From Oegoconia quadripuncta (Eukaryota > Arthropoda > Insecta > Lepidoptera > Autostichidae): DNA of 64,000 nucleotides. Position 1 is the first letter of the stretch, and each line of letters begins with the position of its first letter. The notes beneath the pieces were generated by a model. The model did no database searches. It saw only the letters and a program-made list of their open reading frames with translations, and was not told the origin of the DNA. A program made the translations under genes and the position numbers. Shown piece after piece: positions 7,224 through 43,733 of the stretch. The stretch is from positions 19,422,414 through 19,486,413 of the forward strand of contig OX438749.1 in assembly GCA_949316235.1 (NCBI GenBank), written 5' to 3'.

Positions 7224-7226
7224 AAA

Positions 7227-14038: not shown

Positions 14039-14052
14039 AAGTATTGCTACAC

Positions 14053-14272: not shown

Positions 14273-15129
14273 TCTTACCAAACACATTGTTTCTTGACCG
14301 TCGTGGCGTTTAAACAGAGATGCACTCAGGCGTAGTGGTGGGACATTTCTAAAACATTTCCTTAAAGCTGAAACTTCAGGTAATGTGTCCGTCACGTATT
14401 GTCACGCATTTGTCCGGCGCACTGTCAATGTCATCTAGAATATTTAATAAGTTACCTAATTACGTTAAAAACGAAGCGAAATTCATACAATTATTAACAC
14501 AACTATTAATTAAAAAATGCTATTACACAATAAATGATACATGATCGACAATTTTAAAAATATAATAATAATTAAATAACATAAATAAATAATAATATAA
14601 TAAAAATAAATAACATATGTGAATAATAATATAAATAAATTGCATAAATAAATAATAATATAATGCAAATAAATATACTATTAATAATTAATTTAAAGGA
14701 AAATAATAATATAATTCGAATACAATGGTAAAAATACATATGATGTACACTAACAATAGATTAATTATCTAGCTAGTAATTGTGAATAATGAATTAAGAA
14801 CCTATTCTTAATACAGTACCTAATAAATAATTATTTCAATTAGTGCATGCTACTCTCTCATGTTGATGTGCCTTCATAAGGTCCTTTTTGATATAGTACA
14901 CCATAATAACATTAAAACAAAACATAAGGAATGCAATAAATGATTTGAGTTTGAGTTTAGTAATTAATGATTGTCCTAAGCAAATTTAAAACTTTCTTAC
15001 TTTCAAAAATTAAGGCAAAAAAGTTATTAACACTTTCGCGGACACTAAACGCTTGTAGACGTAATAACAATAAAACCTCTATTGTGTCTGGCTCACTGTC
15101 CGTGAAAGTGTATAAAAAAATCTGCATGA
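14273..15129. other. AT-rich low-complexity spacer
   Basis: About 14560-14720 is a run of ATAATAATATAAATAAAT-like sequence. Overlapping antisense ORFs at 14957-15226 span the LTR border and are judged spurious. Confidence 0.5.
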
Positions 15130-15133
15130 ATCT
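15130..15133. repeat. Target duplication ATCT, left copy
   Basis: ATCT precedes the 5' LTR and is repeated at 32082-32085 after the 3' LTR. A 4-bp duplication fits errantivirus/gypsy integration. Confidence 0.85.
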
Positions 15134-15354
15134 AGTTACCAAGCCGTAAGGCCTGGTATTAGCTGACGCTGCACCCGGAATCGAGGCTACACGCACCGAC
15201 TTATTGCTAGTATTGTCTTTATGCATTTCTGATGTACCATTTATTATTTTTGAATGTAATCAGTCTCATAACAGCTCTCTTTGAGTAAACATTATCTTTT
15301 GTCATTAAATTAGTCTTTTTTAAAAACCCTTTTTCCGACCGCCAATACGTAACT
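15134..15354 (+). repeat. Errantivirus 5' LTR
   Basis: 221 bp, matching 31861-32081. No TATA box is evident. TCAGTC at 15260-15265 fits the initiator type used by TATA-less gypsy-group LTRs; the 3' LTR has TCAGCC at that place. Confidence 0.9.
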
Positions 15355-15364
15355 GGCGCAGTCG
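15354..15364 (+). promoter_or_regulatory. Errantivirus primer-binding site
   Basis: TGGCGCAGTCG starts at the last T of the LTR. From memory this matches the serine-tRNA primer site of the 17.6/297/TED-type insect elements. Confidence 0.7.
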
Positions 15365-15555
15365 ATATTCTCGCGGTACACCTGAAAACTTTCTACAATC
15401 GAGAGTTGGCGCGGTATATCTCTCTATCGCGCCGGGTGAAGAAAGAAGCAGTCTACAAGCACGAAGTAGCTGGCAGCCGCGAAGGAACCTCTCCCCAACT
15501 GGCGGTCACCTTTGGAGCTTGGAGTCCGGAGAATTGGAATCCACGCTGCAGCTGT

Positions 15556-15590
15556 ATGAGACCCGATCAGGAAATGCAAACACTACTGTG
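15556..15590 (+). other. Possible leader exon for spliced env mRNA
   Basis: Two in-frame ATGs (15556 and 15574) precede a good splice donor, GTG/GTGAGC, with the intron starting at 15591. The frame runs to a stop just beyond the donor, so unspliced it codes only a short peptide. The exon ends in phase 2. An acceptor at 30177/30178 (TTGTTCCAG) has the matching phase for the env frame. Splicing of env from a 5' leader is known for gypsy-type errantiviruses; its use here is inferred. Confidence 0.5.
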
Positions 15591-15748
15591 GTGAGCACTC
15601 GTTCATTTACCAAGTTCCTTTGCTCTATTTCCTATCGTATAGTTTAGACACCTTATTTACATACTTAAGTACCACGTGTGTCCGTCTGTACGCTATTATC
15701 GCTATAGATTTGTCCTTGTCAATTTCCGAGGCACAGGCTCACGTAACA

Positions 15749-16734
15749 ATGTCGGAATCAGATTTCAAAACATTGTCCGACTTAATGCCGCGTTACGATG
15801 GCAATCCGAAACTATTGAATATGTTTATTTCTGATGTAGATAATTTATTACAGCTGTTCGATATTAAAGAGCCATTATCGCACTTAGTAGTATGCCTTAT
15901 AAAAAGTAGGCTTTGCGGAAATGCGCTCGATGCCCTTGCATATGAAAAAGCCCTCCTTAGTTGGGATCAAATTAAGAATGCATTAGTACGTCGTTTGGGC
16001 GACCCTCGCAATGAGATCCAGGTGATGCAGGACCTCACACGCGCTCGACGTCTTAAGTCCGAGGACTCTGAAGCGTACGGAAAACGTTTACGCGAAATTT
16101 TAGAAACTCTGTACTCGGTAGGTAACAATTCGGATAAGTCTTACTATGAGCAAATGGTTATCGAGCAGTACGTAAACCAGTTAGAGTTTCACGTGTCGTT
16201 GGGCGTTCGTATTACAAGGCCAATGACCTTAGAAGGCGCTATCATTGCTGCTCGGCAGGAGGAAGCAAGACTCGCTTGTAATCCCCCACCTGGAATGGTT
16301 CAAAATAAGCCGAAGGTCGATACAATTAGAAGTAATAACTTCCCTCGTTCATCAGGCCCCTTTAATACTAATAATGCGCAACCTCATTTCTCACAAAATT
16401 GCCAACCACAATTTTTGCAAAATGTACAACCCCAATCTAGCTGGCCGGCAGAACAACGTCAGCCGAGACAACCAATGCTACCATGGCACCAAAAACCAAA
16501 CCAAGGTAATTTTAGAAGTAATAATAATTCTGGCACATTTAGGAATTCCGGGAACTTCAGACAACAGAATATACCGTTCAACTCTGGCAACCAAGCCCAG
16601 AAAAACTCCACTGATGTCACCATGCGGTCAGTAGCCAAGCCGCAAACGCCTAACTTTGGGCAGGACCTATTTTGCATGCCTCAGGAGCAGCAGCCTTTCT
16701 CGAACCCTGTACCACAGGAGTTCCACGCTGACGG
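15749..16734 (+). pseudogene. gag: Errantivirus gag, 5' part, split by a LINE
   Basis: The frame is open from 15620, but the likely start is ATG 15749. The product begins MSESDFKTLSDLMPRYDGNP and continues through a helical capsid-like region (SWDQIKNALVRRLGDPRNE) typical of errantivirus Gag, then a Gln/Asn/Pro-rich tail without zinc knuckles. At 16735 the frame enters the tail of the inserted LINE and stops at 16789, so its last 17 or so residues are LINE-derived. The remaining native gag codons resume at 26382. Gag would form the particle core; this copy should yield a slightly truncated, foreign-ended version and cannot reach pol by frameshifting. Confidence 0.8.
16728..16734. repeat. Target duplication CTGACGG, left copy
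   Basis: Repeated at 26375-26381. The two copies sit in the same gag frame, so they mark the LINE insertion point. Confidence 0.75.
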
Positions 16735-17051
16735 CGGCGATTATAAGAATAATTATAAGAATAAGAATAATTTATTTAACCACAGGTAAAATTCAGTAGT
16801 TTACAACCGGTAAAATTTTGTAATATTAATTAGAATCTCTAAAAGTACGTTCCCAGCCGATGCTCATGCTAAGCATTAAAAATACTTGTGTTATAAGCAT
16901 CAGCTGCCAACTCCTCAATGGACTCCTAAATTTACATTAATAGAACAAAATCTAAGCAAACCTGTGTTTGTTATCGCCTGTGTGTGAGGGAGATATTAAA
17001 TTTTATGTGTATAGTGTAAGTGCTTGAAAGGGTCTACGTGCGCGTGGGTGT

Positions 17052-17057
17052 ATGTAT

Positions 17058-17128
<71 letters not shown>

Positions 17129-17158
17129 TGTGTGTGTGTGTGTGCGTGTGCGTGTGTG
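17052..17158 (+). repeat. (TG)n microsatellite in the LINE 3' UTR
   Basis: About 107 bp of almost pure TG, with a few A and C interruptions at the right end. It lies between the LINE tail and the inner LTR. The ORFs it creates on both strands are artefacts. Confidence 0.95.
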
Positions 17159-17195
17159 AGCCACGAGAAATTACTATTACTTTTGTATTATATTG

Positions 17196-17199
17196 TATA
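17196..17199. repeat. Target duplication TATA, left copy
   Basis: TATA abuts the inner 5' LTR and recurs at 22560-22563. The site is TA-rich, so the exact length could be misjudged by a base. Confidence 0.7.
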
Positions 17200-17558
17200 T
17201 GTCGGCGGTAGTTAAAGAAAGTCATCGCATGCACCCGAGCTACGTCACTTCGAGCAAGACGACACGTCAATCGTGCGTTTACGTGTTCGCAGAACGTGCA
17301 TCGAGCGGGGGCGACCTTTCACTTTGCTATAAAAGCGACACTCCGGCCGGTCTGGCATTCATTCTTCCACCAACTCGGTGCACGGACTGTAGTCTTGCTC
17401 TTACTTGTTTGTGAATTATTATTTGTTAATTAATTAAATTAAATAATCGTAATTAGTGAATTACTTTATGAAGCGAATAATTATTTTGTTAAATAAAAAT
17501 TACCCTTCTTTGAAACCGAACTACGCTGGTTTTAATTATGGACGGCCCTGCTCCTACA
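17200..17558 (+). repeat. Mdg3-like 5' LTR
   Basis: Contains TATAAAAG at 17328-17335, a plausible start region about 25-30 bases downstream, and AATAAA at 17492-17497. The gag start codon lies within its last 21 bases. Confidence 0.92.
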
Positions 17559-19598
17559 TCAGAAGTGGGATCGGAACATCAGCCCACAGATGACGCACCA
17601 AGGTCAGGAGTAGCCGCTCAGATGGCTTTGTTTTCTGCTAGCATGGAGAATATCTTTAGAAGAATGGCCGATGAGATAATGAAACCTTCCACATCATCAT
17701 CTTCTTCTATTTCACTGATTAAGTTTGATCCTGATGACCCGGATGTGGACATAGAAGGGTGGATTAATTTAACAGAACTGGTGATAAAAACCAAAAAGTT
17801 AGAAGGAGTGGACTTACTTTTAGCGGTAAGCAATGCTCTAAAGGGACCAGCTGCTAGTTGTTTAACTAAAATCAGCCATAGCGATATTTCGTGGACCAAT
17901 ATAAAAGATGTGCTTGTGTCCAAATTTTCAAAGCCTATGACAATGCAAGACCACTTTGACAAGATCATTAAATTTCAATTTCTGAAAGAAGAAGAAGCTT
18001 CCCAAGCAGGTTTACGTTTATGGCAGTTAATAGAAAAGATTCCCAACGCTGAATTACCGGAGAACGTTATAACTGGTTTCACCGTCTCCGTCCTGTCTCA
18101 CTGCAACGACGTCATCAGGCGCGAGTTAAACGCTACTATTATCACTAATAAGACGCAGCTGTTTCGCATTCTTCGAGGAGTCACGCTGAAAAGGAAGTCA
18201 AACGATACTGATATAACAGAACCCGAACCAAAGAAGCCTCGCATATCTATCCCAAACCAATTTCGAGGCAACTGCCATTACTGCGGAAGGATTGGCCACC
18301 GAGGCAGTGAGTGTCGAGACAAAATTCGCGCTAGAATATCTACAAACCAATCATCTAAGCTGGAAATACAGAAAGAAAAGCCTACTGTTACCTGTTATGT
18401 CTGTGGTGAGCCGGGACACGTCGCCTCGTCCTGCCCTGCACGTCGTGAAAAGACGAAAACTCCAACTAGCACCAAAGAAGTTAACCTGTGCACAAAGGCT
18501 GCGCGGGGTACCTTGGAGGTTGAAGGTAACAATATCGCATTTATCTTCGATTCTGGATCTGAGTGTAGTCTAGTTAAGGAAAGTCAGTCCCACTTGCTAG
18601 GTGGGAAAAGGTCTCATGATTTAATTAAGATGGTCGGTATTGGTTATAGTAGCATCGAAAGTTTTATGCAGATCACGTGCACCGTTTTCATTCAAAACAT
18701 CCCAATGGCTATAACTTTCCATGTGATTCCAGATGACTGTATGAGAGAAAACATCTTGCTGGGTCGAGATGTGTTAGATTCTGGAATATCTGTTAGGATC
18801 AGTAACGAGTCTTTAGTGTTCGAACAGAAGCTAAATAAATCTTCTTCGAAAAATTGTGCCTTTTTAGAACTTGATTCAATTGATACAGATCTAACCGGTC
18901 TCGACAAAGTTAAGTTATTGTCAATTCTGAACAAGTATTCCAACTGTTTTATACAAGATCTCCCAAAAACACGAATCAAAACAGGTGAGCTGATAATAAA
19001 ACTTGTAGAGCCCAACAAACTTGTTCAAAGACGCCCTTATAGATTATCTCCAGGAGAACTCGAAACGGTCGATAAGAAGGTGAAGGAACTATTAGATGCC
19101 AACATTATTCGCGAAAGTTCATCTCCTTATTCCAGCCCCATACTGCTAGTGAAAAAGAAAGACGGCAGCGAGCGCTTGTGTGTAGATTACAGGGAGTTAA
19201 ATAATAATACCGTGCATGATAGTTATCCTCTACCATTGATTAGCGATCAGATAGACAAACTTAATGGGGCTCACTATTTTTCCAATGTTGACATGGTTTC
19301 TGGTTTCCATCAGCTTCCAGTTCATGAAGATTCCATTCAACTAACAGCCTTTGTTACACCAAGAGGACATTATGAATATCTCGCAATGCCCTTTGGGCTT
19401 AGGAATGCCCCTCAGGTGTTTCAAAGAGCAATCAATACCGCTCTTCGACCCCTGGACGATAATAAAATCCTAGTATACCTCGACGACGTCCTCTCTACAT
19501 CCACTACTGTAGACGAGGGCTTATCCCGTTTAGATAAATTGCTCGAAAGGTTGTCCGATTGTGGATTTTCGTTTAACTTCAACAAATGTAAATCATGA
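17538..19598 (+). CDS. Gag-protease-RT part of the Mdg3-like polyprotein, frame broken
   Basis: 686 residues from ATG 17538, which lies inside the 5' LTR. Gag is followed by two CX2CX4HX4C zinc knuckles (CHYCGRIGHRGSEC near 246 and CYVCGEPGHVASSC near 286), a protease with FDSGSE (Asp near 338), and RT with the YLDD motif at 647-650. The frame ends TGA at 19596-19598. The next frame opens at an ATG overlapping that stop (ATGA) and continues the RT thumb, so gag and pol were probably one ORF before a one-base change. Whether a -1 shift could occur here is unknown; I see no strong slippery heptamer. It encodes the structural proteins and the first part of the replication enzyme of this element. 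Confidence 0.85.
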   Translation: MDGPAPTSEVGSEHQPTDDAPRSGVAAQMALFSASMENIFRRMADEIMKPSTSSSSSISLIKFDPDDPDVDIEGWINLTELVIKTKKLEGVDLLLAVSNALKGPAASCLTKISHSDISWTNIKDVLVSKFSKPMTMQDHFDKIIKFQFLKEEEASQAGLRLWQLIEKIPNAELPENVITGFTVSVLSHCNDVIRRELNATIITNKTQLFRILRGVTLKRKSNDTDITEPEPKKPRISIPNQFRGNCHYCGRIGHRGSECRDKIRARISTNQSSKLEIQKEKPTVTCYVCGEPGHVASSCPARREKTKTPTSTKEVNLCTKAARGTLEVEGNNIAFIFDSGSECSLVKESQSHLLGGKRSHDLIKMVGIGYSSIESFMQITCTVFIQNIPMAITFHVIPDDCMRENILLGRDVLDSGISVRISNESLVFEQKLNKSSSKNCAFLELDSIDTDLTGLDKVKLLSILNKYSNCFIQDLPKTRIKTGELIIKLVEPNKLVQRRPYRLSPGELETVDKKVKELLDANIIRESSSPYSSPILLVKKKDGSERLCVDYRELNNNTVHDSYPLPLISDQIDKLNGAHYFSNVDMVSGFHQLPVHEDSIQLTAFVTPRGHYEYLAMPFGLRNAPQVFQRAINTALRPLDDNKILVYLDDVLSTSTTVDEGLSRLDKLLERLSDCGFSFNFNKCKS
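17559..17577 (+). promoter_or_regulatory. tRNA-Leu-type primer-binding site inside gag
   Basis: TCAGAAGTGGGATCGGAAC begins right after the LTR. It closely fits the complement of a leucine tRNA acceptor/T-arm region, starting a few bases in from the CCA end. It also encodes Gag residues 8-14. Confidence 0.6.
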
Positions 19599-21829
19599 AA
19601 AACAAGGTCGAATATCTCGGTTTTGTTGTTAGTGAAGGTGAAGTAAGACCCAACCCAAAGAAAATTGAAGCCTTAGCAAAAGTATCTACGCCAACCACTG
19701 TCACTCAGGTAAGACAATTAATTGGTTTAGCGTCCTATTTCCGACAGTTTATTCCCGATTTTTCCCGGCTTATAAAACCCTTATATCCTTTAACAAAAGG
19801 GCATGGCAAAATCAAATGGACTTCAGAGCATGATAAGATCCACAAAACTTTGATAAAATTTTTAACTAATGAACCCCTTTTGAAAATCTTTGATCCCGCT
19901 CTGCCCATTGAAATTCATACTGACGCAAGTTCCGATGGCTATGGGGCCGTATTAATCCAGAAAAACGGAAACACTTCTCAGGTTGTAGCATATTTTAGCC
20001 AGCGAACGAAAGATGCAGAAAGTCGTTATCATTCCTACGAGTTGGAAACTTTAGCAGTCGTCCGTGCCGTGGAACACTTCCGTCATTATATTTACGGTCG
20101 GCAATTCAAAGTCTTTACAGATTGCAATTCACTGAAGGCCTCATATCTGAAGAAGGATTTAACCCCTAGGGTTCACCGATGGTGGGCAATCCTCCAAGCC
20201 TATAATTTCGAAATTGTTTACAAGGAAGGTAGAAGCATGGCGCATGCAGATTTTTTATCCCGAAATCCGATTGCTGGTAATGAGCCTATTTTAGAGTCAA
20301 AATTAAAGACGGAACCTAGAGTCATCAACTTCAACGAGTTGCAGAGGAATTGGCTTTTAGTTGAACAGCAGCGAGATCCTGAACTAACGGAAATTATTTC
20401 AAAACTTCGGTCAAATGATTTACCAGAAGAAATTTCTCGAACCTACGATATTAGGCAAGGAATATTGTACCGTAAGATAGAACGCAGGAGGATGACTAGT
20501 TGGTTGCCAATTGTTCCTCGATCCCTTGTATGGAGTTTAATCAATCATATCCATAATGAGATCAAACATTTAGGTTATGATAAAACCCTAGAAAAGCTTT
20601 ATGAAATGTTTTGGTTTCCTAATATGGCAAAATTTGTCAAAAAGTTCACAGATTCTTGTCTAATCTGCAAAACATCAAAGGGATCGTCGGGAGCACAACA
20701 GGTTCGCTTACATCCAATTCCTAAGTCTGCTATACCGTGGTACACTATCCACATGGACATATCTGGAAAGTTAAGTGGTAAGAGTGAAAGGCGCGAGTAC
20801 TGCTCAGTTTTGATTGACTCTTTCACTAAATTTGTGCTCCTGGAGTATACTCCTTCTCTAAGTGCATCCAATGCTGTCATTGCATTAAGAAAAGCGATTA
20901 ATCACTTCGGGGCACCCAAACGCATTATCGCAGATCGGGGTCGTTCTTATGATAGTACCGAGTTCAAAGACTTTTGCAGAGAAAACAATATTGAGCTACA
21001 CTTGATTGCTACAGGTTCTTCCAGGGCAAACGGACAGGTGGAACGCGTTATGCGTACTCTGAAGAGCATGCTTACCATAAGCGAAAACAGCTCTAATGAC
21101 ATTTGGCAGGACCAGTTAGGTGAAATACAGCTAGCTCTTAACAGTACACGTTGTCGGGTAACGGGATTTTCGCCTTTAGAACTAATGTTTGGTATTCGAG
21201 GGAATTCCTTAGGTATAGCCAGGGTCTCCCCCATAACTTCAGAGACAACTAGGCTAGACCTTGAGCAGGCCAGATTGAGCGCATCCAGCAATATGCAAAG
21301 GTTAGCACAAGCAGAAGTTCCACATTTTAACAGAGGAAAAGCCGCAGTAAAACGATTCGCCGTGGGTGACTTCGTTTTCGTGAAATGCGAGGAAAGACAC
21401 CAAACAAAGCTCGATCGAAAGTACAAAGGTCCATTTCAAATAACTAGAGTTCTCGAAAATGACAGGTATGAACTAAAGCATGTTAATGGTACTAACAGAG
21501 TTTTCAAGTATGCTCACGAAAATCTAAGGCAAGTACCGAGTGGTCAAACTGGGTTTTTGGAAGTAGTAGAAAACTACAGTGACAGTGATGACACTGTGTC
21601 GGCGGAAAATTCAGAGGAATCTGCTGAAAACGCACAGGGAATTTCGCAAAACGACGATATTGCTCCTAATGTCCTACCAAGTTTAGACAATATTTCTATT
21701 CCTCATTATCCCAATAATGATGAGACTATATCCAATACCTCCGAAACTTTATCTGCTGATTCCGAAACACTATCTGCCGGATCCGATACTCTATCGGCCG
21801 AAAGCTTAGAGATGGAAGAATTGCCTTAA
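19595..21829 (+). CDS. RT end, RNase H and integrase of the Mdg3-like element
   Basis: 744 residues. It starts in the RT thumb/connection (YLGFVVSEGEVRPNPKK), then RNase H (IHTDASSDGYGAVL near 110), a zinc-binding integrase N-terminus ending CLICKTSKG, and a catalytic core with Asp 388, Asp 447 and Glu 483, i.e. D58D35E. A chromoless C-terminal region (VGDFVFVKCEERHQTKLDRK) is followed by an acidic Ser/Thr-rich tail. All integrase catalytic residues are kept. The ATG at 19595 may not be a real start; the frame is most simply the continuation of the upstream ORF. Confidence 0.85.
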   Translation: MKNKVEYLGFVVSEGEVRPNPKKIEALAKVSTPTTVTQVRQLIGLASYFRQFIPDFSRLIKPLYPLTKGHGKIKWTSEHDKIHKTLIKFLTNEPLLKIFDPALPIEIHTDASSDGYGAVLIQKNGNTSQVVAYFSQRTKDAESRYHSYELETLAVVRAVEHFRHYIYGRQFKVFTDCNSLKASYLKKDLTPRVHRWWAILQAYNFEIVYKEGRSMAHADFLSRNPIAGNEPILESKLKTEPRVINFNELQRNWLLVEQQRDPELTEIISKLRSNDLPEEISRTYDIRQGILYRKIERRRMTSWLPIVPRSLVWSLINHIHNEIKHLGYDKTLEKLYEMFWFPNMAKFVKKFTDSCLICKTSKGSSGAQQVRLHPIPKSAIPWYTIHMDISGKLSGKSERREYCSVLIDSFTKFVLLEYTPSLSASNAVIALRKAINHFGAPKRIIADRGRSYDSTEFKDFCRENNIELHLIATGSSRANGQVERVMRTLKSMLTISENSSNDIWQDQLGEIQLALNSTRCRVTGFSPLELMFGIRGNSLGIARVSPITSETTRLDLEQARLSASSNMQRLAQAEVPHFNRGKAAVKRFAVGDFVFVKCEERHQTKLDRKYKGPFQITRVLENDRYELKHVNGTNRVFKYAHENLRQVPSGQTGFLEVVENYSDSDDTVSAENSEESAENAQGISQNDDIAPNVLPSLDNISIPHYPNNDETISNTSETLSADSETLSAGSDTLSAESLEMEELP

Positions 21830-21910
21830 TTATGGTTATGATTCTTTTTCTCCCCTGATTATCCGTTAAAAATTTTGCCATAATGTACGTAGGTATGTCG
21901 CTGCAGTGAC

Positions 21911-22086
21911 TTCTGAAGGGACATTAATTGTCTGGACCATGCTTATTCTGAAAGGATATTGTCCGTCTGGATCAGACACCATTCTGAAGGGGCCTATTTT
22001 GCATGGACCAGCATAATACTAAAGGGGCCTGAGGTCCGGTCTAGTAACGATCTATATGAAGGGCACTTTATGCCGGACCTGAATAG
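21911..22086 (+). repeat. Five degenerate ~35-bp repeats in the element's 3' UTR
   Basis: Units begin near 21911, 21946, 21982, 22017 and 22053. Each has a TCTGAAGGG-like start and a GTCTGGACCA-like end. Spacing is a regular 35-36 bases although the units have diverged. Confidence 0.75.
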
Positions 22087-22200
22087 TTCATTGAAATTCT
22101 GATTGTCAGGGTGGACGAACTAATGATAAAATATCTCTTACCTGCAGATTGATGACTGAGCTGGGGCGCGTGCGAGGACACACGCTTGTCAGTCTGGCCG

Positions 22201-22559
22201 TGTCGGCGGTAGTTAAAGAAAGTCATCGCATGCACCCGAGCTACGTCACTTCGAGCAAGACGACAGGTCAATCGTGCGTTTACGTGTTCGCAGAACGTGC
22301 ATCGAGCGGGGGCGACCTTTCACTTTGCTATAAAAGCGACACTCCGGCCGGTCTGGCATTCATTCTTCCACCAACTCGGTGCACGGACTGTAGTCTTGCT
22401 CTTACTTGTTTGTGAATTATTATTTGTTAATTAATTAAATTAAATAATCGTAATTAGTGAATTACTTTATAAAGCGAATAATTATTTTGTTAAATAAAAA
22501 TTACCCTTCTTTGAAACCGAACTACGCCGGTTTTAATTATGGACGGCCCTGCTCCTACA
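22201..22559 (+). repeat. Mdg3-like 3' LTR
   Basis: 359 bp at a constant offset of 5001 from the 5' LTR. TATAAAAG at 22329-22336 and AATAAA at 22493-22498. Its end again carries the gag ATG (22539), which here runs only a few codons into LINE sequence before a stop. Confidence 0.92.
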
Positions 22560-22622
22560 TATATATACATATAGTGATATATAAATATTTTTATATTAGG
22601 TAAATAAGAGGTAAGTCTACAG

Positions 22623-25562
22623 TCAGGTTATGTTTAAAAGTAAATTTTCAGTTTCCTCGTAGGAAAGAGTGACTAACCAATTATTAATAACTCCTTTGCA
22701 CTGCTTTTTATTTAGTGGGAAGATTGCAAGAAGTTCATTTACTTTGTTATATAGTCTCGGACCTTGATAACACAAAAACCGGTGTGCAAAAGAGGTTCTA
22801 AATAATTTCCGAGGACAGACGTTGTGATCAAGGCGCTTAGTTGCTGATAAATGGTCTACTGTGTAGTACAACGATGAGTGTTGTTTTGTTATGGTAAGTA
22901 ATATGTATAATTGTCTGACCGTTAAAACTTGTGTTATGTTATACAATGTAATTGTGGGGAAGGTGTATGGTTTAAATAGGCATACTTTTAGTAAGATCCT
23001 TTGAGCTCGTTCGACTAGGATTATGTTTGTTTTTGCAGCTCCGCCCCAACAGGTAATTCCATACGAGATAACTGACTGGCAAAGTGAAAGATAGACCTGT
23101 CTCACGATTCCACCTGCAGCGACATGCCTCAGTTGCTTAAAGATATATATTAGTTTCCTAATTCTTTTTGAAAGCTGTAGTATATGTTCCTCGAAATTCA
23201 AATTCTTATCAATGATTAACCCTAAGTATTTTACATAGTGCGTACACTGTATAGGTGGGCATTGGCACAAGCCCATTAATGGATTCGTACAACTATGTGC
23301 CAAGATATTTCGGTTCAAGTTTAGGGGAAATGAGGGGTTTCTGATTGCAAACGGGATAAATTTTGTTTTATCTGGATTCAAAGTTAAAGAATTCGCAGCA
23401 AGCCAATGGCATACTCTATTGAATCCTATTTGAGCTTGTAGGAACACAACCTCCCAGCTATCGGCTACAAAGGTGAGAGTGGTATCATCTGCGTAAGAAA
23501 TTATTTCACAGCCCTCTATATGGAGGTTACACAGATCATTTAAGTAACATAAAAATAGGGTGGGACCAAGAATACTACCCTGTGGTATTCCATAAGAGGC
23601 TGTTGTTTCATCACTGATAACGTCATCGATATTGACGCATTGCGTTCTATTTGTGAGATAATTTTGAAATAGTTGAAGTTGAAGACCCCTAATACCTAGT
23701 TTTTCTAATTTATTTAACAAGATGGGAATAGAAACTGTGTCAAAAGCCTTTGCAAGGTCTAAGAATATAGAAATACACTTTTTTTTATTGTCAAGAGCTC
23801 GCACTATTATATCCGTATATCTGTGAAGGGCATCTTCAGTTGATTTACCTGTTCGGAATCCAAACTGCTTGTTTGATAATAGATTATTACTTTCAAGGTA
23901 GTTGGTTAGCCTATTGTTAATTATTCTTTCAAAAACTTTGGATATGGTAGGTAAAATTGAAATGGGTCTGTAATTATTTACACAGCTTCTATCCCCAGCC
24001 TTGTGTATAGGTCTTAAGATTGATTTCTTCATGGAATTCGGAAAAATTCCTTGGTTCAGGCAGCAATTTACTATATGATGGAGGGGGGATGTAATTTTAT
24101 CTTTTACAGCTTTCAGAATTTTCGCACTAATGCCATCTATGCCAACCGCACAGTCTGATCGAAGCCCAAGTATCGCATGTTCAATTTCCTCATTCGTGGA
24201 GTCAAAAAGCACAAAGGATTCTCTCCTGGACGTGTGATTATCTCTGTTATCGCACATAAAAGGTATTCCTGTTGGAATTTTTCCTGCGAGATTTTTTCCT
24301 ACGTTGGCAAAAAAGGTGTTGACATGATTAACAGATTCTGTATGTGAGTCGGATATTGTTAGTAGTTCGGTGGGGCTGTTTTTGTTCTTTTTAAGATTCG
24401 TGATATCTTTTATGGCAGTCCATAATTTTTTATTATTATTACCGGCAGATCTAATTAACTCTGCATCGTACCTTCTCTTTGTTTTTTTGATTAAGTTTGT
24501 ACAAAAATTTCTGTATCGTCTGTATGTTGTTTTTAATATATTATTATCCGGGTCCAGCCTTAAATGTCTATGCATCCTATCCCTATTTCGAAGGCAGCGA
24601 AGAAGTCCTTGAGTCATCCAAGGTTTTGTAGTGACTTGACTACATGGAATTTTAACGGGTAAAGAGTTATTTTTAATTACTTTAAGCAATAACTCAGACA
24701 GACAGCTCAGGGCAGACTCCGGGTCGGGTATTGCATAAATTTTCTGTAAATCTTCCTGATCAAAATCTGTTTTTAGACGCTCAAAGTTTATTTTACACCT
24801 ATATTTATTTTTATAAAAATCAGATTTATACTCATTATCCATACTAAGTAGTGTCGCCTTATGATCGGTGATTGTGGTCTGGATAATACAGCTGACGCAT
24901 TTTAATTTAGTTTTAATAGCTAAATGGTCTAGGCAACTTACATTCGTTGTTAGCTCATCGTAGACCAACAACAGACCCTCATAGTTGAGCATGTCTATAT
25001 AATCCGGGGCATACCTATCGGCGCTTGTTTTGGCTATATTTATGTTAATGTCGCCCACCAAGATAATGTTTTTGTAATTTTTTAATTTTAATAAGTGTGA
25101 CTGTAAAGAATTAATAAAATTTGTGGGATTTGGAAAGCAGTGTGGTCGGTATATTGCGATGATCACCGTATCCGTACCCAATTTTATAATTAGAGAAGTT
25201 GCATCAGAGATGTCAGGCTCCTGTACTGAAACTAAAATATTAGCTCTAGTATAAACGACCACTCCGTCGTTTTGATTGTAATTATTACAAGTACTATGGT
25301 GTGAGTAGCCGTCCAATACAGGTAATCTGCCAGCACATGATAACCAACACTCTGTCAAAACAATTATGTCGCACTGTAACTTTATTCTTGTTAAAAGCGC
25401 ACTTAGTTCATTAAAATTGCGTTTTATACTACGGATGTTTTGATGCAATACATTAATCCGAGTTCCCAGGTTGTGAATTAAGGTATGACATTTTTCCGCA
25501 TCACATTCAAATAGTTCCGCGACACAGAATTGATCTATGTTATTGTGTACTAGGTTGTCCAC
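22623..25562 (-). CDS. LINE ORF2: AP endonuclease and reverse transcriptase
   Basis: 979 residues from ATG 25562, uninterrupted. Residues about 35-250 form an apurinic-type endonuclease (HQNIRSI, VLTECWL, LVGDININ, and ITDHKA). Residues about 480-760 form the RT, with NYRPISILP, FLDLAKAFDTV, GIPQGSILGP and the catalytic YADD at 690-693. No RNase H and no gag-like knuckle follow, as in CR1-type LINEs. The enzyme would nick target DNA and reverse transcribe its own RNA from the 3' end. The spacing to the preceding ORF1 stop is about 575 bases, which is long. ORF2 looks intact although this copy lost most of ORF1. Confidence 0.9.
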   Translation of the reverse strand: MDNLVHNNIDQFCVAELFECDAEKCHTLIHNLGTRINVLHQNIRSIKRNFNELSALLTRIKLQCDIIVLTECWLSCAGRLPVLDGYSHHSTCNNYNQNDGVVVYTRANILVSVQEPDISDATSLIIKLGTDTVIIAIYRPHCFPNPTNFINSLQSHLLKLKNYKNIILVGDININIAKTSADRYAPDYIDMLNYEGLLLVYDELTTNVSCLDHLAIKTKLKCVSCIIQTTITDHKATLLSMDNEYKSDFYKNKYRCKINFERLKTDFDQEDLQKIYAIPDPESALSCLSELLLKVIKNNSLPVKIPCSQVTTKPWMTQGLLRCLRNRDRMHRHLRLDPDNNILKTTYRRYRNFCTNLIKKTKRRYDAELIRSAGNNNKKLWTAIKDITNLKKNKNSPTELLTISDSHTESVNHVNTFFANVGKNLAGKIPTGIPFMCDNRDNHTSRRESFVLFDSTNEEIEHAILGLRSDCAVGIDGISAKILKAVKDKITSPLHHIVNCCLNQGIFPNSMKKSILRPIHKAGDRSCVNNYRPISILPTISKVFERIINNRLTNYLESNNLLSNKQFGFRTGKSTEDALHRYTDIIVRALDNKKKCISIFLDLAKAFDTVSIPILLNKLEKLGIRGLQLQLFQNYLTNRTQCVNIDDVISDETTASYGIPQGSILGPTLFLCYLNDLCNLHIEGCEIISYADDTTLTFVADSWEVVFLQAQIGFNRVCHWLAANSLTLNPDKTKFIPFAIRNPSFPLNLNRNILAHSCTNPLMGLCQCPPIQCTHYVKYLGLIIDKNLNFEEHILQLSKRIRKLIYIFKQLRHVAAGGIVRQVYLSLCQSVISYGITCWGGAAKTNIILVERAQRILLKVCLFKPYTFPTITLYNITQVLTVRQLYILLTITKQHSSLYYTVDHLSATKRLDHNVCPRKLFRTSFAHRFLCYQGPRLYNKVNELLAIFPLNKKQCKGVINNWLVTLSYEETENLLLNIT

Positions 25563-26116
25563 TTTAATTGTATATTTAATAGGTGAGCTATCCTATAGGT
25601 ATAGGGGGAGACGCTGCCGCGAGGACGGATTGTTGTGTGAATCATCGTAATAGGTAGAACTTCATAGTTTTTATGGTTGCGTTGAGGTGTCACGGGACAA
25701 GTAGTATTGCAATATGCATTGTGCCGATATGACGTCTTACTTTGTTTGAAGATCGAATCAGCCGATGATTTACTATGTAATCGAGAAATAATAAGGCACA
25801 GTAAAATTAGGTGTATGTATAATTGATCGTATAGGTGTATAGTATGAATTAACCGTGGACAAATATATGCGAAATTGTTTTTATCTTTATTTAAAGTGTG
25901 GTGTGTGTGCGGTGGCCAGGGATTTGGCACATATAATTGATGTATACTGTGATGGTATATACTTAATATATGTGTATGTAGGATTTGCATTTTATGGGTA
26001 AGTAATAGTGAAGAGTAGATTAATTTCGTGGAATTTGAGTAGTAAGGTTTGTCGTGCGTGGATTTGAAATAAGAATATTTTTGCATGCAATTATACAATT
26101 CAAAAAATAGCAACAA
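25550..26116 (-). CDS. Uncertain ORF in the LINE inter-ORF region
   Basis: 188 codons open between the ORF1 stop (26138) and the ORF2 start, overlapping ORF2 by 13 bases in another frame. The product is rich in His, Tyr, Ile and Thr with no domain I know. It may simply be an AT-rich non-coding spacer that lacks stops. Confidence 0.2.
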   Translation of the reverse strand: MLLFFELYNCMQKYSYFKSTHDKPYYSNSTKLIYSSLLLTHKMQILHTHILSIYHHSIHQLYVPNPWPPHTHHTLNKDKNNFAYICPRLIHTIHLYDQLYIHLILLCLIISRLHSKSSADSIFKQSKTSYRHNAYCNTTCPVTPQRNHKNYEVLPITMIHTTIRPRGSVSPYTYRIAHLLNIQLKWTT

Positions 26117-26137
26117 ATAAGTTAACGGTAAAAAAAG

Positions 26138-26326
26138 TCACGCTAATGTAGATTGTCCAATCTTATCAAAGTCATGTTCACTATTTATACATATCGCAGG
26201 GTCACCTTGTTTCTTACGTAGGTAGATTTTGCCGTGCGAGGTCCAGCAGTAGGTATATTCGTTCAGTTTAGCAAACTCTCTGGCCGAAAAGAACAATTTT
26301 TTGGCTTTTTGACGATTGTTCCTACC
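26138..26326 (-). pseudogene. LINE ORF1 C-terminal remnant (baculovirus FP-C-like domain)
   Basis: About 62 codons ending TGA at 26138, with an in-frame stop upstream at 26327. It contains LFFSAREFAKLNEYTYCW and KIYLRKKQGDPAICI. This alternation of a basic helix, an aromatic Y-x-Y-x-W run and a K-I-x-x-R-K strand resembles the C-terminal domain shared by baculovirus FP25K and many insect LINE ORF1 proteins (remembered, not searched). The upstream coiled-coil part is absent because the LINE is truncated at 26374. Confidence 0.55.
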
Positions 26327-26374
26327 TTAACTACCAAGGTGACACAACATACGACACAACACGCGCCCCCGAGA

Positions 26375-26381
26375 CTGACGG
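26375..26381. repeat. Target duplication CTGACGG, right copy
   Basis: Partner of 16728-16734. It shares the gag reading frame with the left copy. Confidence 0.75.
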
Positions 26382-29300
26382 AAGCTTCACGCAGGATTTT
26401 CCCGAGGCAGTGAACGAAAGCGACCACAGTTAGTTAAGCTAAATAATCACCATAAAGACCACTTACCATATATTGAAATTCCTGAATTCCATGGCAAATT
26501 TTTGATCGATACGGGCGCCTCCCGGTCTATGCTTTCCCCAAGTGCAATTTATGGAACGCCTCTTGAAAATTACGTCACGTATGAACCTTTCGAAGTAAAG
26601 ACAGCCCACGCACGATCAACCCATAATTTTGTTGCCCAGTTACCACTGCCCCCACTATTCAACAGCGACTTGACTCATAAGTTTTTACTTTTTGACTTTG
26701 ACCCTAAATATAAAGGCCTTATAGGCCTCGACTTGTTAAAGAACATGTCCAGTAACATAGACCTAAAAAACAAAGTTCTATGTACGTCATCGGCCGATAT
26801 CCCCATACATTTTGACCACCCTACCCGACAACTTATCATTGACCCCCGACACGAAAAGCTCGTTTTAGTAAAAACTCATTTTGCTGATGGGATCTACCTA
26901 CAAGAAGAACATGTTTGGTCTCCCTCAATAATTTCCCCTGCTGCCGTTGTTACCGTTAAAAATGGTGTATTCCATACTACTGTCCGAAACCTTACAAACA
27001 AAAAAAGAACATTCTCCAACACCGAGCTTTTTCACTTAGAGCCCTACTCGAAAGACCTTGATACGTGTGAATTAAATTCTATACAAATCGACAAAGCACT
27101 GGATGAAGAACTTTGTGAAAATTTGAAGAATATTCGCACGGATCAGCTGAATGAGGAGGAAAAACGTGAGCTTAAGAAGCTGTGCTACAATTATAGAAAC
27201 CTGTTCTATTCTGAGAACATACCCCTCACGTTTACTCACGCCGTCAAACATGAATTACGTTTGCGGGATAATACCCCTATATTTGTACGTAGCTACCGAC
27301 AACCCCCTCAGCAGCGTGCCGAAATTAAAAACCAAATTGATGGCCTTCTCAAACAAGGAATTATCCGCGAAAGCATATCCCCTTGGTCCTGTCCGGTACA
27401 CATTGTACCCAAGAAACCAGATGCCTTAGGGAAAGTAAAATGGCGGCTAGTCATTGACTACCGGCGACTTAACGACAGAATAGTGGAAGACAAATATCCC
27501 CTCCCCAACATATATGACATCCTTGATAGGGTAGGACGTGCCCAATATTTTACAACCCTTGATTTAGCTAGTGGATATCATCAAGTCGAAATGCACCCTG
27601 ACGACATCGAAAAAACAGCATTTTCCACAGAAAGAGGGCACTATGAGTTCACAAGAATGCCTTTTGGACTGAAAAATGCTCCGAGCACTTTTCAAAGGCT
27701 GATGGACCATATCCTAAGGGGTATAGATAACGTCTTTACTTATCTCGATGATGTTATAATCGTTTCCACCTCACTACAGCAACACCTGGAGAAAATTAAA
27801 GAGGTGTTTGAGAGATTTAAGACCCACAATTTAAAAATCCAACTAGCAAAGTCAGAATTTTTGAAAAAACAAGTCAATTTCTTAGGACATGAACTGACAT
27901 CCGAAGGTCTCAAGCCGAACTCCGATAAGACCAAAGCCGTCCTGAACTTCCCAGTGCCTGTCACCCATAAAGATGTCAAAGCCTTTCTAGGTTTAGTAGG
28001 GTACTACAGGAAGTTTATACGAGACTTTGCTAAACTGACGAAACCACTGACCGAATGCCTCAAGAAAGGCAGACGAGTAACCCACTCTCCCGAATTCTTA
28101 GAAGCGGTGGAAAAATGTAAACTACTCCTCACAAACAGTCCAATACTACAATACCCTGACTTCGATAAGCCCTTCATACTGACCACAGATGCCTCTGACG
28201 TCGCCCTTGGTGCTGTACTATCCCAAGGTACAGTTGGCTCCGATAAACCCATAGCTTTTGCCTCACGCACGCTCTCGGACTCCGAAACTCGTTACTCCAC
28301 TATTGAAAAGGAGTTACTAGCCATTATATGGGCAATTAAGTACTTTCGACCTTATCTGTATGGCCGTAAGTTCGTCATTTACACTGACCACCGCCCACTC
28401 ACTTGGTTGATGTCCTTGAAAGATCCCGACTCTAAACTAACCCGTTGGCGTCTCCGCTTAGCAGAGTACGACTATACAGTTATCTATAAGAAGGGCAAAC
28501 AGAATACCAACGCCGACGCGCTATCCAGAGCCAAAATCTTTCACAATAGCATTGAGTCCCTTGTAGTCAATCTCGATGACAACGAAGATGATGATATAAT
28601 TAACCGCATCTTCGAGACTGCCCGCAGAGAAGCCGAAGACACTGAGACAAACCAACCCCCACCCCCTAACGATGACTTAATGTCCGACGACCAGCACGAG
28701 AATGAGACAAATGACGTAATAACTTTACCTCCAACAGTTGACACTAGACCAGCTAGTATTACCACTGCTGGACCCAGTCAATTAATTTCAACCAATCACA
28801 CACAAGCTGACAACCAGAACCCTGGTATACCCATCACTTCCGATGCTATAGATAGACAATTGAAGCAATTCTATATCCGCTCTACCCCTGGATCAGAGTA
28901 TAGAGTAGATGACAGATCCACGAACTCAAGGGTAGTTATCAAAGATGTTTTTATCCCCATTAACAACACAGAGCAGGAGATAGTACGCTTCTTAAAAGAA
29001 CACACAATAGCGGACCGCATTTTCCATTGTTATTTTTATAGCGAAGATCTCTATTTAGCCTTCTCCAGAGTGTACACCTCTGTTTTCAATGATCGAGGCC
29101 CTAAACTGTACAGATGTACATCCAGAGTAACCCTAGTAGAGAACAAAACGGAACAAACAGATATAATTAAAAAATTCCATGAAGGTAAGAGAGTACACAG
29201 GGGTATCCAGGAAACCTACAAGCAAATCCAGAGGCACTATCATTGGCCTAATATGTTACTAAGGGTCCAAGCCTACGTAAATCAATGCGAAGTGTGCCTG

Positions 29301-30224
29301 CAAGGAAAATACGAGCGGAACCCTTTGAGACCCCCCCTAGCCGTTACAGAAACCCCTACAAAACCCATGGAGCACCTTTTCATGGACTTATATTCCACCG
29401 GAGGCGCTACTTTCTTAACAACAGTAGATAACTTCTCGAAATTTGCCCAAGCCATTCCCATAACCGCATCTAGCAGTATACACGTAGCGGACGCTTTACT
29501 ACAAGTTTTCTCGGTACTTGGTCTACCTAATAAAATAACGACTGATTCGGATACTAAATTCGATAATGACGTCATCAAAGAGATTTGTGCTTCCCATAAC
29601 ATACACATACATTTTACTACCCCATACAACCCTAACTCCAACTCCCCTGTAGAACGATTCCATTCGACTATAGGTGAAATTATACGACTGCAGAGACTTA
29701 CTAATAAAGATGACACTCTACAAACACTTATGAAATACTCCTTAATTGCATACAATAACACTATCCATTCAGCAACAGGCTATACCCCTCGGGAGCTCCT
29801 ATTTGGTCATACCGAATCCAGAAACCCTTTAGAAATCTATTATCCTCGCGAATTCTACCAAGACTACGTGAATAAACATCGCACCAATGCTACAGCAGTG
29901 CAGGAATGCGTAGCAGCTAACATGTCTACTAACAAGGACCAAGTCATCGCCAGACGAAATCAGGAAGCCGAGTCAGTCCAGCTTAAGGTAGGTGAAATTG
30001 TCTTTAAACAAGTAGCCAAAACAGCGAGGAATGATAAAACGAAACCGGTATTCAAGGGCCCGTATAAAATCATCCATCTACACCCTAATAACGTAGCAGA
30101 GATCATAGGAAGTCACCCTAATGCCAAATCAATACGCGTCCACTTTAGACTTTTAAGACGACCTCATCTTGTTCCAGGTCAGTCTTCGCAGGAACCTTCT
30201 TGCTCTTCGCAGCAGGTACCATGA
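26379..30224 (+). CDS. pol: Errantivirus Pol: protease, RT, RNase H, integrase
   Basis: Open frame of about 1,280 codons, normally reached by -1 frameshifting from gag. Residue numbers here count from 26502. Protease with LIDTGAS at the start; RT with YLDD at 414-417; RNase H with TTDAS near 563; HHCC integrase zinc region near 898-925 (CEVCLQGK); integrase core with Asp 962, Asp 1015 and Glu 1051, a regular D52D35E. A C-terminal region with FKGPYKIIHLHPNN follows. All catalytic residues expected of a Ty3/gypsy Pol are present and there is no stop or frameshift. Translation from this locus is doubtful because gag is split 9.6 kb upstream. The end overlaps the env frame. Confidence 0.9.
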   Translation, partial: RKLHAGFSRGSERKRPQLVKLNNHHKDHLPYIEIPEFHGKFLIDTGASRSMLSPSAIYGTPLENYVTYEPFEVKTAHARSTHNFVAQLPLPPLFNSDLTHKFLLFDFDPKYKGLIGLDLLKNMSSNIDLKNKVLCTSSADIPIHFDHPTRQLIIDPRHEKLVLVKTHFADGIYLQEEHVWSPSIISPAAVVTVKNGVFHTTVRNLTNKKRTFSNTELFHLEPYSKDLDTCELNSIQIDKALDEELCENLKNIRTDQLNEEEKRELKKLCYNYRNLFYSENIPLTFTHAVKHELRLRDNTPIFVRSYRQPPQQRAEIKNQIDGLLKQGIIRESISPWSCPVHIVPKKPDALGKVKWRLVIDYRRLNDRIVEDKYPLPNIYDILDRVGRAQYFTTLDLASGYHQVEMHPDDIEKTAFSTERGHYEFTRMPFGLKNAPSTFQRLMDHILRGIDNVFTYLDDVIIVSTSLQQHLEKIKEVFERFKTHNLKIQLAKSEFLKKQVNFLGHELTSEGLKPNSDKTKAVLNFPVPVTHKDVKAFLGLVGYYRKFIRDFAKLTKPLTECLKKGRRVTHSPEFLEAVEKCKLLLTNSPILQYPDFDKPFILTTDASDVALGAVLSQGTVGSDKPIAFASRTLSDSETRYSTIEKELLAIIWAIKYFRPYLYGRKFVIYTDHRPLTWLMSLKDPDSKLTRWRLRLAEYDYTVIYKKGKQNTNADALSRAKIFHNSIESLVVNLDDNEDDDIINRIFETARREAEDTETNQPPPPNDDLMSDDQHENETNDVITLPPTVDTRPASITTAGPSQLISTNHTQADNQNPGIPITSDAIDRQLKQFYIRSTPGSEYRVDDRSTNSRVVIKDVFIPINNTEQEIVRFLKEHTIADRIFHCYFYSEDLYLAFSRVYTSVFNDRGPKLYRCTSRVTLVENKTEQTDIIKKFHEGKRVHRGIQETYKQIQRHYHWPNMLLRVQAYVNQCEVCLQGKYERNPLRPPLAVTETPTKPMEHLFMDLYSTGGATFLTTVDNFSKFAQAIPITASSSIHVADALLQVFSVLGLPNKITTDSDTKFDNDVIKEICASHNIHIHFTTPYNPNSNSPVERFHSTIGEIIRLQRLTNKDDTLQTLMKYSLIAYNNTIHSATGYTPRELLFGHTESRNPLEIYYPREFYQDYVNKHRTNATAVQECVAANMSTNKDQVIARRNQEAESVQLKVGEIVFKQVAKTARNDKTKPVFKGPYKIIHLHPNNVAEIIGSHPNAKSIRVHFRLLRRPHLVPGQSSQEPSCSSQQVP
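26382..26433 (+). pseudogene. gag: Errantivirus gag, displaced 3' end
   Basis: Acidic final codons of gag (SFTQDFPEAVNESDHS) ending TAG at 26431-26433, in frame with 16734 once the insertion is discounted. It overlaps the open pol frame by about 52 bases in the -1 relation, as expected for errantiviruses. No canonical slippery heptamer is obvious; a T-rich GAT-TTT-CCC near 26394 is the only candidate. Confidence 0.65.
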
Positions 30225-31876
30225 CCGTAACCCGAGTAGATTCCTCTTCCGGAACCCTTTTACTAAAACAAGGGAAAATCCTCCAACAAGTCGATACTTC
30301 CAGTCTTATATGTGTTTATAACATTTCAGAAATACAAGTAACTTCTCTTAAACTATTAGAGTTATTTATTAGAACTGAAGCTATCGAAGCTCAAACGACA
30401 CCTGAAGTTCAGCATAATACATATAAAGAACAAATATCCCATACATTTAAAATAATCGATAGTAAGATAGCTTTTTTATTACCTCATACTAGAGCCAGAC
30501 GAGGATTAGTTAATGGTTTAGGATCAGTAGTGAAAGCTATAACTGGAAATCTCGATAACGACGACGCAGTCAAGATGGAAGAAGAACTGCATAAGCTTCG
30601 ACATCGTGTAGTCGAAGTTTCCACACAGCAGAAAAGCTCTGTAGTTCTAGCAGAAAAAACTATCTCCGATTTCAGCAAAAATTTACAAATTATAGTCGCA
30701 AACCAACAAAAGCTAGGAGCTGCATTGTTAAACACTACAGCTTCTTCTAAACTGGCTTTCACCCAATTACACTTTTTAGATATTTACGTCCAATTAGATT
30801 TTAGTTTGCAAATAATTTTAGATACTTTAATGTTGTTAGAAGACGCAATTACTTTCTCTCAGATTAGTATTATGCACGCCAGCATAATTAGCCCCCAAAA
30901 TTTAGTACACGAATTGATACAGCTACAGAATAACTTCTCTTTGGTGCCCGTGACTGATATTAATATTAATAATATTCATATAATCGAGCGATCTATAGAC
31001 GTTAAAGCGTATAGTACAGCACAGACGCTAACGTTCATTTTAGAAATACCATCCGTTTCCACCTCTTCATACGATTTAGTTCACATTTACTCCATACCTA
31101 ATCCTGCCAATCTTACCATCATTCCTAAATCCAAATTCCTCATACTTGGTAGTGATGAGTTCGCTTACTTGCAAGATCCATGTCGAGAGATTACGGACTC
31201 CCTGCAACTGTGCAAACACCTCGAGACAAAACCAATCAAGGAAGCACAAGACTGTTTGCTGTCCCTTCTAAATCATCAAGACGCCAACTGCACATACGCT
31301 AAGATGAATATACGTACAGGAAAAATCCAGAAGCTCACCCCTAGCAGCTGGCTCATCATCTCTCCGCGGGATGAACTCCTTAGATCATTCTGCAACCTGA
31401 AGACTGACTACAAACGCATATCAGGCGTACATATAATCTCACTCTCAGAGCACTGTCACGCACAAGTTATGAACCGAACCCTGACGTCACATAGTCCTAC
31501 GCTGTACATACATGACGTCATACCATTACCGCCGGAGCAAGTGTTGCCCTCCAGCAATGTACAGTACAACCTACAACTAGAAGATGTGCCTTTAGACGAT
31601 ATACACCAACTCGTAAACAGGTTAGAGATGAGAATCGACTCCGACAACGATGAAGATTGGACACCCATTTCTGCCACACCCAGTTGGCCGACCCTGTTGA
31701 TATATATGATCGGCGGTGCCATCCTCTCCTGGAAACTATATCAATGCTGGAACGGGAGAAAACAATTTAAGACCCAGACAACATCGAGCGCTTCAGAGAC
31801 ACCAACCCCCTGCAAACCCATTGGAAGCTGCGGAGCACGCTTCTATCTTAAGGAGGGAGGAGTTACCAAGCCGTAA
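30178..31876 (+). CDS. env: Errantivirus envelope glycoprotein
   Basis: The frame is open from 30149 and overlaps the end of pol; there is no in-frame ATG near the acceptor at 30178, and the first ATG in frame is 30221. Residue numbers count from 30200. A furin-type RARR (98-101) is followed by a Gly-rich hydrophobic stretch GLVNGLGSV like a fusion peptide, then heptad-rich helix (MEEELHKLRHRVVEV), a Cys-containing middle, a membrane anchor near 497-513 (LLIYMIGGAILSW) and a cytoplasmic tail of about 40 residues ending in the LTR. This is the layout of insect errantivirus/baculovirus F-like fusion proteins. A hydrophobic leader-like stretch lies just after the acceptor, so a signal peptide probably needs the spliced leader exon. 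No inactivating change seen. Confidence 0.85.
31850..31860 (+). promoter_or_regulatory. Errantivirus polypurine tract
   Basis: AAGGAGGGAGG directly abuts the 3' LTR; it is the expected primer site for plus-strand synthesis and lies inside env. Confidence 0.85.
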
Positions 31877-32081
31877 GGCCTGGTATTAGCTGACGCTGCA
31901 CCCGGAATCGAGGCTACACGCACCGACTTATTGCTAGTATTGTCTTTATGCATTTCTGATGTACAATTTATTATTTTTGAATGTAATCAGCCTCATAACA
32001 GCTCTCTTTGAGTAAACATTATCTTTTGTCATTAAATTAGTCTTTTTTAAAAACCCTTTTTCCGACCGCCAATACGTAACT
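31861..32081 (+). repeat. Errantivirus 3' LTR
   Basis: 221 bp. It differs from the 5' LTR at about 31972 (GTACAATT against GTACCATT) and about 31989 (CAGCC against CAGTC). The env stop codon lies inside it. Confidence 0.92.
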
Positions 32082-32099
32082 ATCTGTATCACGGAAATT

Positions 32100-43706: not shown

Positions 43707-43733
43707 CGGGACAATCCTTCAAAGATAATAATA

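What the first reader, a model, noticed from the sequence alone, without database searches (positions are those of the whole stretch)
15134..32081. Three-generation nest: errantivirus > LINE > Mdg3-like LTR element, each with its own target duplication
ATCT flanks the outer element, CTGACGG flanks the LINE, TATA flanks the inner LTR element. The LINE breaks gag in frame; the inner element breaks the LINE's 3' UTR. Pol, env, LINE ORF2 and most of the inner polyprotein are still open, so all three events are recent and the order is certain.
Basis: seen in the sequence. Interest (0 to 1): 0.75.

Follow-up and report, generated by a model that had tools for sequence, protein, structure and literature searches.

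The report
Three jumping genes nested inside one
A retrovirus-like insect jumping gene was interrupted by a second jumping gene, which was itself interrupted by a third; each left its usual short footprint, so this is a clean but ordinary record of successive insertions.

Summary
The nest is real. An env-bearing Ty3/gypsy provirus (15134-32081, LTRs 219/221 identical, duplication ATCT) contains an antisense LINE (16735-26374, duplication CTGACGG). The LINE contains a second Ty3/gypsy element (17200-22559, LTRs 356/359 identical, duplication TATA).

Gag is hit near its end: 328 codons remain and, if the phase continues, about 17 are cut off; the start of the pol frame lies wholly beyond the LINE. 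The inner polyprotein is broken by a frameshift in RT. 'Mdg3-like' could not be tested. 'Order is certain' is slightly too strong: a LINE already carrying the inner element could have been copied in whole. The LINE duplication alone is the weakest (about 4% by chance when tied to the LINE tail).

The own genome could not be searched, so empty sites, other copies and polymorphism are untested. Verdict: an ordinary, well-preserved TE nest, probably in a moth or butterfly genome.

The parts
15130..15133 (.). left copy of the outer 4-bp target duplication (ATCT)
   Evidence: sequence
15134..15354 (+). 5' LTR of the outer errantivirus-type element (221 bp)
   Evidence: 219/221 identical to 31861-32081
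15355..15370 (+). start of the presumed primer binding site (tRNA-Ser type by recall, not tested)
   Evidence: sequence next to the LTR end
15749..16734 (+). gag, 328 codons up to the LINE; weak Ty3_capsid match below cut-off (17.2 vs 29.1 bits); as it stands the frame runs on into the LINE to a stop ending at 16789
16728..16734 (.). left copy of the LINE target duplication (CTGACGG)
16735..17195 (-). LINE 3' end: 5-nt filler CGGCG (16735-16739), 12-nt tandem tail, AATAAA, and a (GT)n stretch 17044-17158 within the presumed 3' UTR
   Evidence: no second LINE copy to compare
17196..17199 (.). left copy of the inner target duplication (TATA)
17200..17558 (+). 5' LTR of the inner Ty3/gypsy element (359 bp)
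   Evidence: 356/359 identical to 22201-22559
17538..19598 (+). inner gag-protease-RT frame (first ATG inside the LTR; CCHC knuckle and RVT_1 above cut-off, protease matches below cut-off), ends in a frameshift inside RT
19592..21829 (+). inner RT end, RNase H and integrase frame
22201..22559 (+). 3' LTR of the inner element
22560..22563 (.). right copy of the inner target duplication (TATA)
22623..25592 (-). LINE ORF2 frame, 989 residues stop to stop, APE-type endonuclease (just below cut-off) plus RT; no ATG before codon 201
26141..26326 (-). remnant of the LINE's ORF1: Baculo_FP_2nd domain (E 9.4e-13); nothing else of an ORF1 was recognised
26375..26381 (.). right copy of the LINE target duplication (CTGACGG)
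26377..26433 (+). presumed end of the gag frame on the right side of the LINE (frame chosen by phase with the left side); overlaps the start of the pol frame
26379..30224 (+). errantivirus pol, open (RT, RNase H, integrase above cut-off; protease match below cut-off)
30149..31876 (+). errantivirus env (Baculo_F), open; first ATG 30221; frame runs through the polypurine tract into the 3' LTR
31861..32081 (+). 3' LTR of the outer element
32082..32085 (.). right copy of the outer target duplication (ATCT)

Best explanation
Three successive, independent retrotransposition events. First, an env-bearing Ty3/gypsy provirus (errantivirus type) integrated at ATCT by its integrase. Second, a LINE of a kind common in Lepidoptera inserted antisense near the 3' end of gag by target-primed reverse transcription, leaving a 7-bp duplication, a 5-nt filler at its 3' junction and a 5' end truncated in ORF1. 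Third, a Ty3/gypsy element without a recognised env integrated at a TA-rich site just behind the LINE's ORF2. Shown: LTR ends, duplications, frames, domains, LTR identities. Inferred: the mechanisms, taken from established knowledge of these families; the exact LINE ends; and the order, from the nesting. This provirus copy should not make Gag-Pol, because the gag and pol frames are separated by 9.6 kb (inference); the env frame is untouched. No host function is implied.
For: LTR pairs and duplications. Domain content in Ty3/gypsy order, and Baculo_F env with E 9.4e-21. 61 env relatives at E up to 1e-3 (7992 best candidates scored), of 12 with an organism name 11 from Lepidoptera and 1 from a mosquito. 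The env frame runs through the polypurine tract into the 3' LTR, and the corresponding C-terminal [KR]EG[GR]V is kept in 8 of 8 aligned relatives (8 chosen of 61), which supports the 3' LTR boundary from outside. LINE ORF2 aligns end to end with 10 relatives (of 120 listed) at 45-54% identity. Baculo_FP_2nd remnant near the 5' end. The left CTGACGG copy lies 5 nt from the LINE tail, chance 3.8%.
Against: The LINE boundaries are not checked against another copy of the same LINE. The right-hand gag frame is identified only by its phase; that frame, and one of the two others, is also open for the 30 codons left of the right CTGACGG copy, so a junction slightly elsewhere is not excluded. The raw chance of some shared 7-mer near the junctions is 15.5%. 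The gag capsid match and the protease matches of both LTR elements are below Pfam's cut-offs. No typical polypurine tract is seen before the inner 3' LTR. No empty site, second copy or read data could be examined.
Confidence: 0.9

Rival explanations
1. The LINE already carried the inner LTR element when it was copied into the provirus, so layers two and three arrived in one event.
For: LINEs move by copying, the ORF2 frame lies upstream of the inner element, and the inner and outer LTR divergences are indistinguishable (0.84% and 0.90%).
Against: The cDNA would have been 9.6 kb, about twice the LINE part alone; the LINE is already 5'-truncated in ORF1, as expected of limited processivity (inference).
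Confidence: 0.05
2. The nest is an assembly chimera.
For: No reads could be examined.
Against: Target duplications at all three levels, on element ends that the LTR repeats define for two of them; a misjoin would not make these.
Confidence: 0.02
3. The LINE insertion was not a clean 7-bp duplication event: the right junction lies some tens of bases to the left of the right CTGACGG, and that match is chance.
For: Unconstrained 7-mer sharing 15.5%, 3.8% when tied to the LINE tail; the gag-phase frame is also open in the 30 codons read left of the right copy; LINE homology is shown only up to about 26311.
Against: Left copy 5 nt from the LINE tail; only 1 shared 7-mer in the whole junction comparison, and it is GC-rich in a window of 38% GC.
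Confidence: 0.08

Closest known systems
Errantiviruses / insect endogenous retroviruses (gypsy group with F-type env), as treated in PMC12992720 and PMC13172572 (passages seen)
   Same: LTRs, gag, Ty3-order pol, F-type env, 4-bp target duplication (the last by recall)
   Different: gag interrupted by a LINE; named relatives found are nearly all lepidopteran (11 of 12); tRNA primer not tested
LINEs of Lepidoptera with APE endonuclease and RT (Jockey superfamily in the sense of PMC4120745, passages seen; clade not tested)
   Same: endonuclease-RT ORF2, short tandem 3' tail, 5' truncation; ORF2 close to lepidopteran proteins
   Different: ORF1 remnant with a Baculo_FP_2nd domain; ORF2 frame without an early ATG
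Ty3/gypsy elements from Lepidoptera (proteins of Trichoplusia, Helicoverpa, Parnassius, Anticarsia, Arctia; two hits there are from an ant)
   Same: gag-protease-RT in one frame, CCHC knuckle, RNase H then integrase
   Different: this copy has a frameshift in RT and no obvious polypurine tract; Mdg3 membership untested
Nested retrotransposons of the silkworm W chromosome (Abe et al. 2000; seen only as a reference-list entry)
   Same: by its title, retroelements nested in a lepidopteran
   Different: original paper not read; chromosome of this window unknown

Membership tests
Errantivirus (env-bearing gypsy) | long terminal repeats with a 4-bp target duplication | tested here: met
Errantivirus (env-bearing gypsy) | pol in Ty3/gypsy order with integrase last | tested here: met
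   (RVT_1, RNase H, H2C2, rve above cut-off; protease below); best PDB match Ty3 Gag-Pol
Errantivirus (env-bearing gypsy) | F-type env after pol | tested here: met
   PF12259 Baculo_F E 9.4e-21
Errantivirus (env-bearing gypsy) | gag with pol in an overlapping second frame | tested here: inconclusive
   pol frame opens at 26379; the frame in phase with left gag ends at 26431-26433, but it is chosen by phase; gag is interrupted; capsid match below cut-off
Errantivirus (env-bearing gypsy) | specific tRNA primer site | not tested
   sequence seen; tRNA identity is recall only
Jockey-superfamily LINE | APE-type endonuclease plus RT in ORF2 | tested here: met
   RVT_1 E 1.6e-36; Exo_endo_phos E 4.1e-5 at 23.9 bits, just below its 24.5 cut-off; some relatives carry both as precomputed domains, among them P0001 and P0002, many only RVT_1
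Jockey-superfamily LINE | clade by RT tree with named references | not testable with these tools
   no named reference sequences at hand
Mdg3 clade of Ty3/gypsy | clade by RT/integrase tree with named references | not testable with these tools
   Pfam and PDB matches give only Ty3/gypsy
Mdg3 clade of Ty3/gypsy | tRNA-Leu primer site | not tested
   sequence seen, tRNA match recalled only; a Culex survey reports tRNA-Leu or tRNA-Ser for Mag-lineage elements (PMC3286476, passages), so it would not decide

The most novel reading that the evidence does not exclude
The provirus survives as an env-only locus. env mRNA of gypsy-type elements is spliced (recalled), so the LINE and inner element could lie inside the env intron and leave Env expressible from the 5' LTR although Gag-Pol is lost. 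A hint: the env frame is open upstream of its first ATG, and one annotated relative (P0124) aligns there with its own N-terminus. A listing of 12 AG dinucleotides in 30090-30235 decided nothing.
Probability: 0.04. Interest if true: 0.5.

Novelty: new member of a known kind. Interest (0 to 1): 0.18.

Why it matters
It is a clear worked example of three copying events recorded in one place, usable to check TE dating. The outer LTRs start 16.7 kb apart, beyond the 1-15 kb spacing used in the one lepidopteran ERV survey seen here (PMC6085415, passage), so nests of this kind would be missed by such a screen. It opens no new question of principle.

Tried and rejected
Related loci in viral contigs for env, LINE ORF2 and the inner gag-RT piece: none confirmed. 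tRNA genes and Rfam families in the window: none at the tools' thresholds. Other copies of seven pieces of the nest within the window: none at E 1e-5, apart from the LTR partners. Empty site of the outer element: the host flanks were laid side by side, but nothing was at hand to compare with. Mdg3 assignment: dropped for lack of named references. Full-length LINE: rejected. Dating one layer against another by LTR divergence: no resolution (95% intervals 0.11-3.3% and 0.17-2.4%).
Full report
Observation. The outer LTRs, 15134-15354 and 31861-32081, differ at 2 of 221 sites and are flanked by ATCT. The inner LTRs, 17200-17558 and 22201-22559, differ at 3 of 359 sites and are flanked by TATA. The LINE stretch 16735-26374 is flanked by CTGACGG, a word found 6 times on the + strand of the window and twice between 16000 and 27000. 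Two random places of the window share a 4-base flanking word in 0.52% and a 7-base word in 0.015% of 200,000 trials. For the LINE, whose ends are not defined by repeats, the fair figures are 15.5% for any shared 7-mer between the two junction stretches and 3.8% (3744 of 99119) when the left copy must end within 6 nt of the LINE tail. A figure of 1.3% with a gag-phase condition is not used: the right-hand gag frame was itself picked by that phase.

Outer element. Pfam finds RVT_1, RNase H, H2C2 and rve above their cut-offs in Ty3/gypsy order and Baculo_F in env (E 9.4e-21). The gag piece matches Ty3_capsid only weakly (17.2 against 29.1 bits), and the protease match is below cut-off too (19.7 against 28.2). 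The best PDB match of the integrase-side half of pol is Ty3 Gag-Pol. Env has 61 relatives with E up to 1e-3 among the 7992 candidates scored; 12 carry an organism name, 11 of them Lepidoptera and one a mosquito (orders by common knowledge). The env frame crosses the polypurine tract (read by eye) into the 3' LTR, and the C-terminal [KR]EG[GR]V coded there is kept in 8 of 8 aligned relatives, chosen from the 61, which supports the LTR boundary from outside. The gag frame is open from its ATG at 15749 for 328 codons to the LINE, then runs 18 residues into it to a stop ending at 16789. On the right side the frame in the same phase ends at 26431-26433, while the pol frame opens at 26379. If that phase is the true one, about 17 gag codons are cut off and the gag/pol overlap lies entirely beyond the LINE. 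No relative's gag was available to check this.

LINE. It lies antisense. ORF2 (22623-25592) is an open frame with RT (E 1.6e-36) and an APE-type endonuclease match just below its cut-off (23.9 against 24.5 bits). Of 449 relatives among 7996 scored candidates the best 120 were listed; the 8 listed with an organism name are Lepidoptera. Ten relatives, chosen from these, align end to end at 45-54% identity. The first ATG in the frame is codon 201, whereas the 10 relatives as annotated begin with Met near the frame start. Upstream, 26141-26326 codes for a Baculo_FP_2nd domain (E 9.4e-13), taken as the C-terminal part of an ORF1 (inference); nothing more of an ORF1 was recognised, so the copy is read as 5'-truncated. 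Its 3' end shows AATAAA, a short tandem tail, and five bases (CGGCG) between tail and duplication, which fits target-primed reverse transcription with a small filler (inference). The stretch behind ORF2 holds a (GT)n run, 17044-17158. No second copy was available to confirm that all of 16735-17195 is LINE.

Inner element. CCHC knuckle, RT, RNase H and integrase domains are above cut-off; two protease matches are below it. No env domain was found in the two frames scanned, and only 371 nt lie between the end of the pol frame and the 3' LTR. The frame changes between 19592 and 19598 inside RT; relatives P0182 and P0184 read straight through this region, so this copy is broken there. Of 17 relatives among 7994 scored candidates, 10 carry an organism name, 8 from Lepidoptera and 2 from an ant. 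Its leading PDB matches are 4ol8 (an RT/RNase H) and Ty3 Gag-Pol, 7q5b. Mdg3 membership was not testable here. The primer site by itself would not settle it, since a Culex survey reports tRNA-Leu or tRNA-Ser sites for Mag-lineage elements (PMC3286476, passages).

Age and order. The 95% Poisson intervals for LTR divergence are 0.11-3.3% (outer) and 0.17-2.4% (inner). With the rate quoted in the silkworm ERV survey (15.6e-9 per year, PMC6085415, passage) the point values give about 0.29 and 0.27 million years (my arithmetic); with 2.9e-9 per generation (recalled) 1.57 and 1.45 million generations. The two LTR ages cannot be told apart. The nesting gives the order, with one reservation: a LINE that already held the inner element could in principle have been copied in as a 9.6-kb unit. 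The 5' truncation makes that unlikely (inference).

Setting. The window holds other elements, among them an apparently complete BEL/Pao element with identical LTRs. The host is probably a lepidopteran (inferred from the protein relatives). Nested retroelements in Lepidoptera are not new: a title on nested elements of the silkworm W chromosome was seen in two reference lists, not read. Literature searches were made; apart from the passages cited, only their listings were seen. I make no claim that anything is absent from print.

Limits. Other copies, empty sites, polymorphism and read support therefore remain untested.

Verdict. A correct and well-seen observation of an ordinary kind of event.

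Noticed in passing
1158-7503: Apparently complete BEL/Pao element on the minus strand: 277-bp LTRs with 0 differences, GCCAG on both sides (1153-1157, 7504-7508), one open frame of 1941 residues with Peptidase_A17, DUF5641, DUF1759 and Integrase_H2C2. Its age was not tested against the nest.
   Followed up: partly
32099-32254: The host DNA starting 13 nt right of the outer duplication matches 9104-9260 (83%) and 53010-53150 (81%), and the next stretch matches 39456-39579 (77%): the provirus sits beside a dispersed repeat; the left flank (14700-15129) has no such match.
   Followed up: partly
15030-15111: Host flank left of the outer element holds an inverted repeat of about 15 bp with one mismatch, by eye, around about 50 nt; no other copy in the window at E 1e-3.
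   Followed up: partly
22150-22200: No typical polypurine tract before the inner 3' LTR; unexplained.
   Followed up: no
26141-26326: LINE ORF1 remnant carries a domain named after the baculovirus FP protein (Baculo_FP_2nd); the word 'baculovirus' does not occur in the main text of a paper on Jockey-superfamily ORF1s (PMC4120745).
   Followed up: partly
38177-38764: Fragment of a DDE_Tnp_1_7 transposase (E 8e-33), piggyBac-like by recall.
   Followed up: no
10625-14267 and 43216-50177: Families of short dispersed repeats, direct and inverted, some with a tRNA-like look by eye; ARAGORN found no tRNA gene.
   Followed up: no
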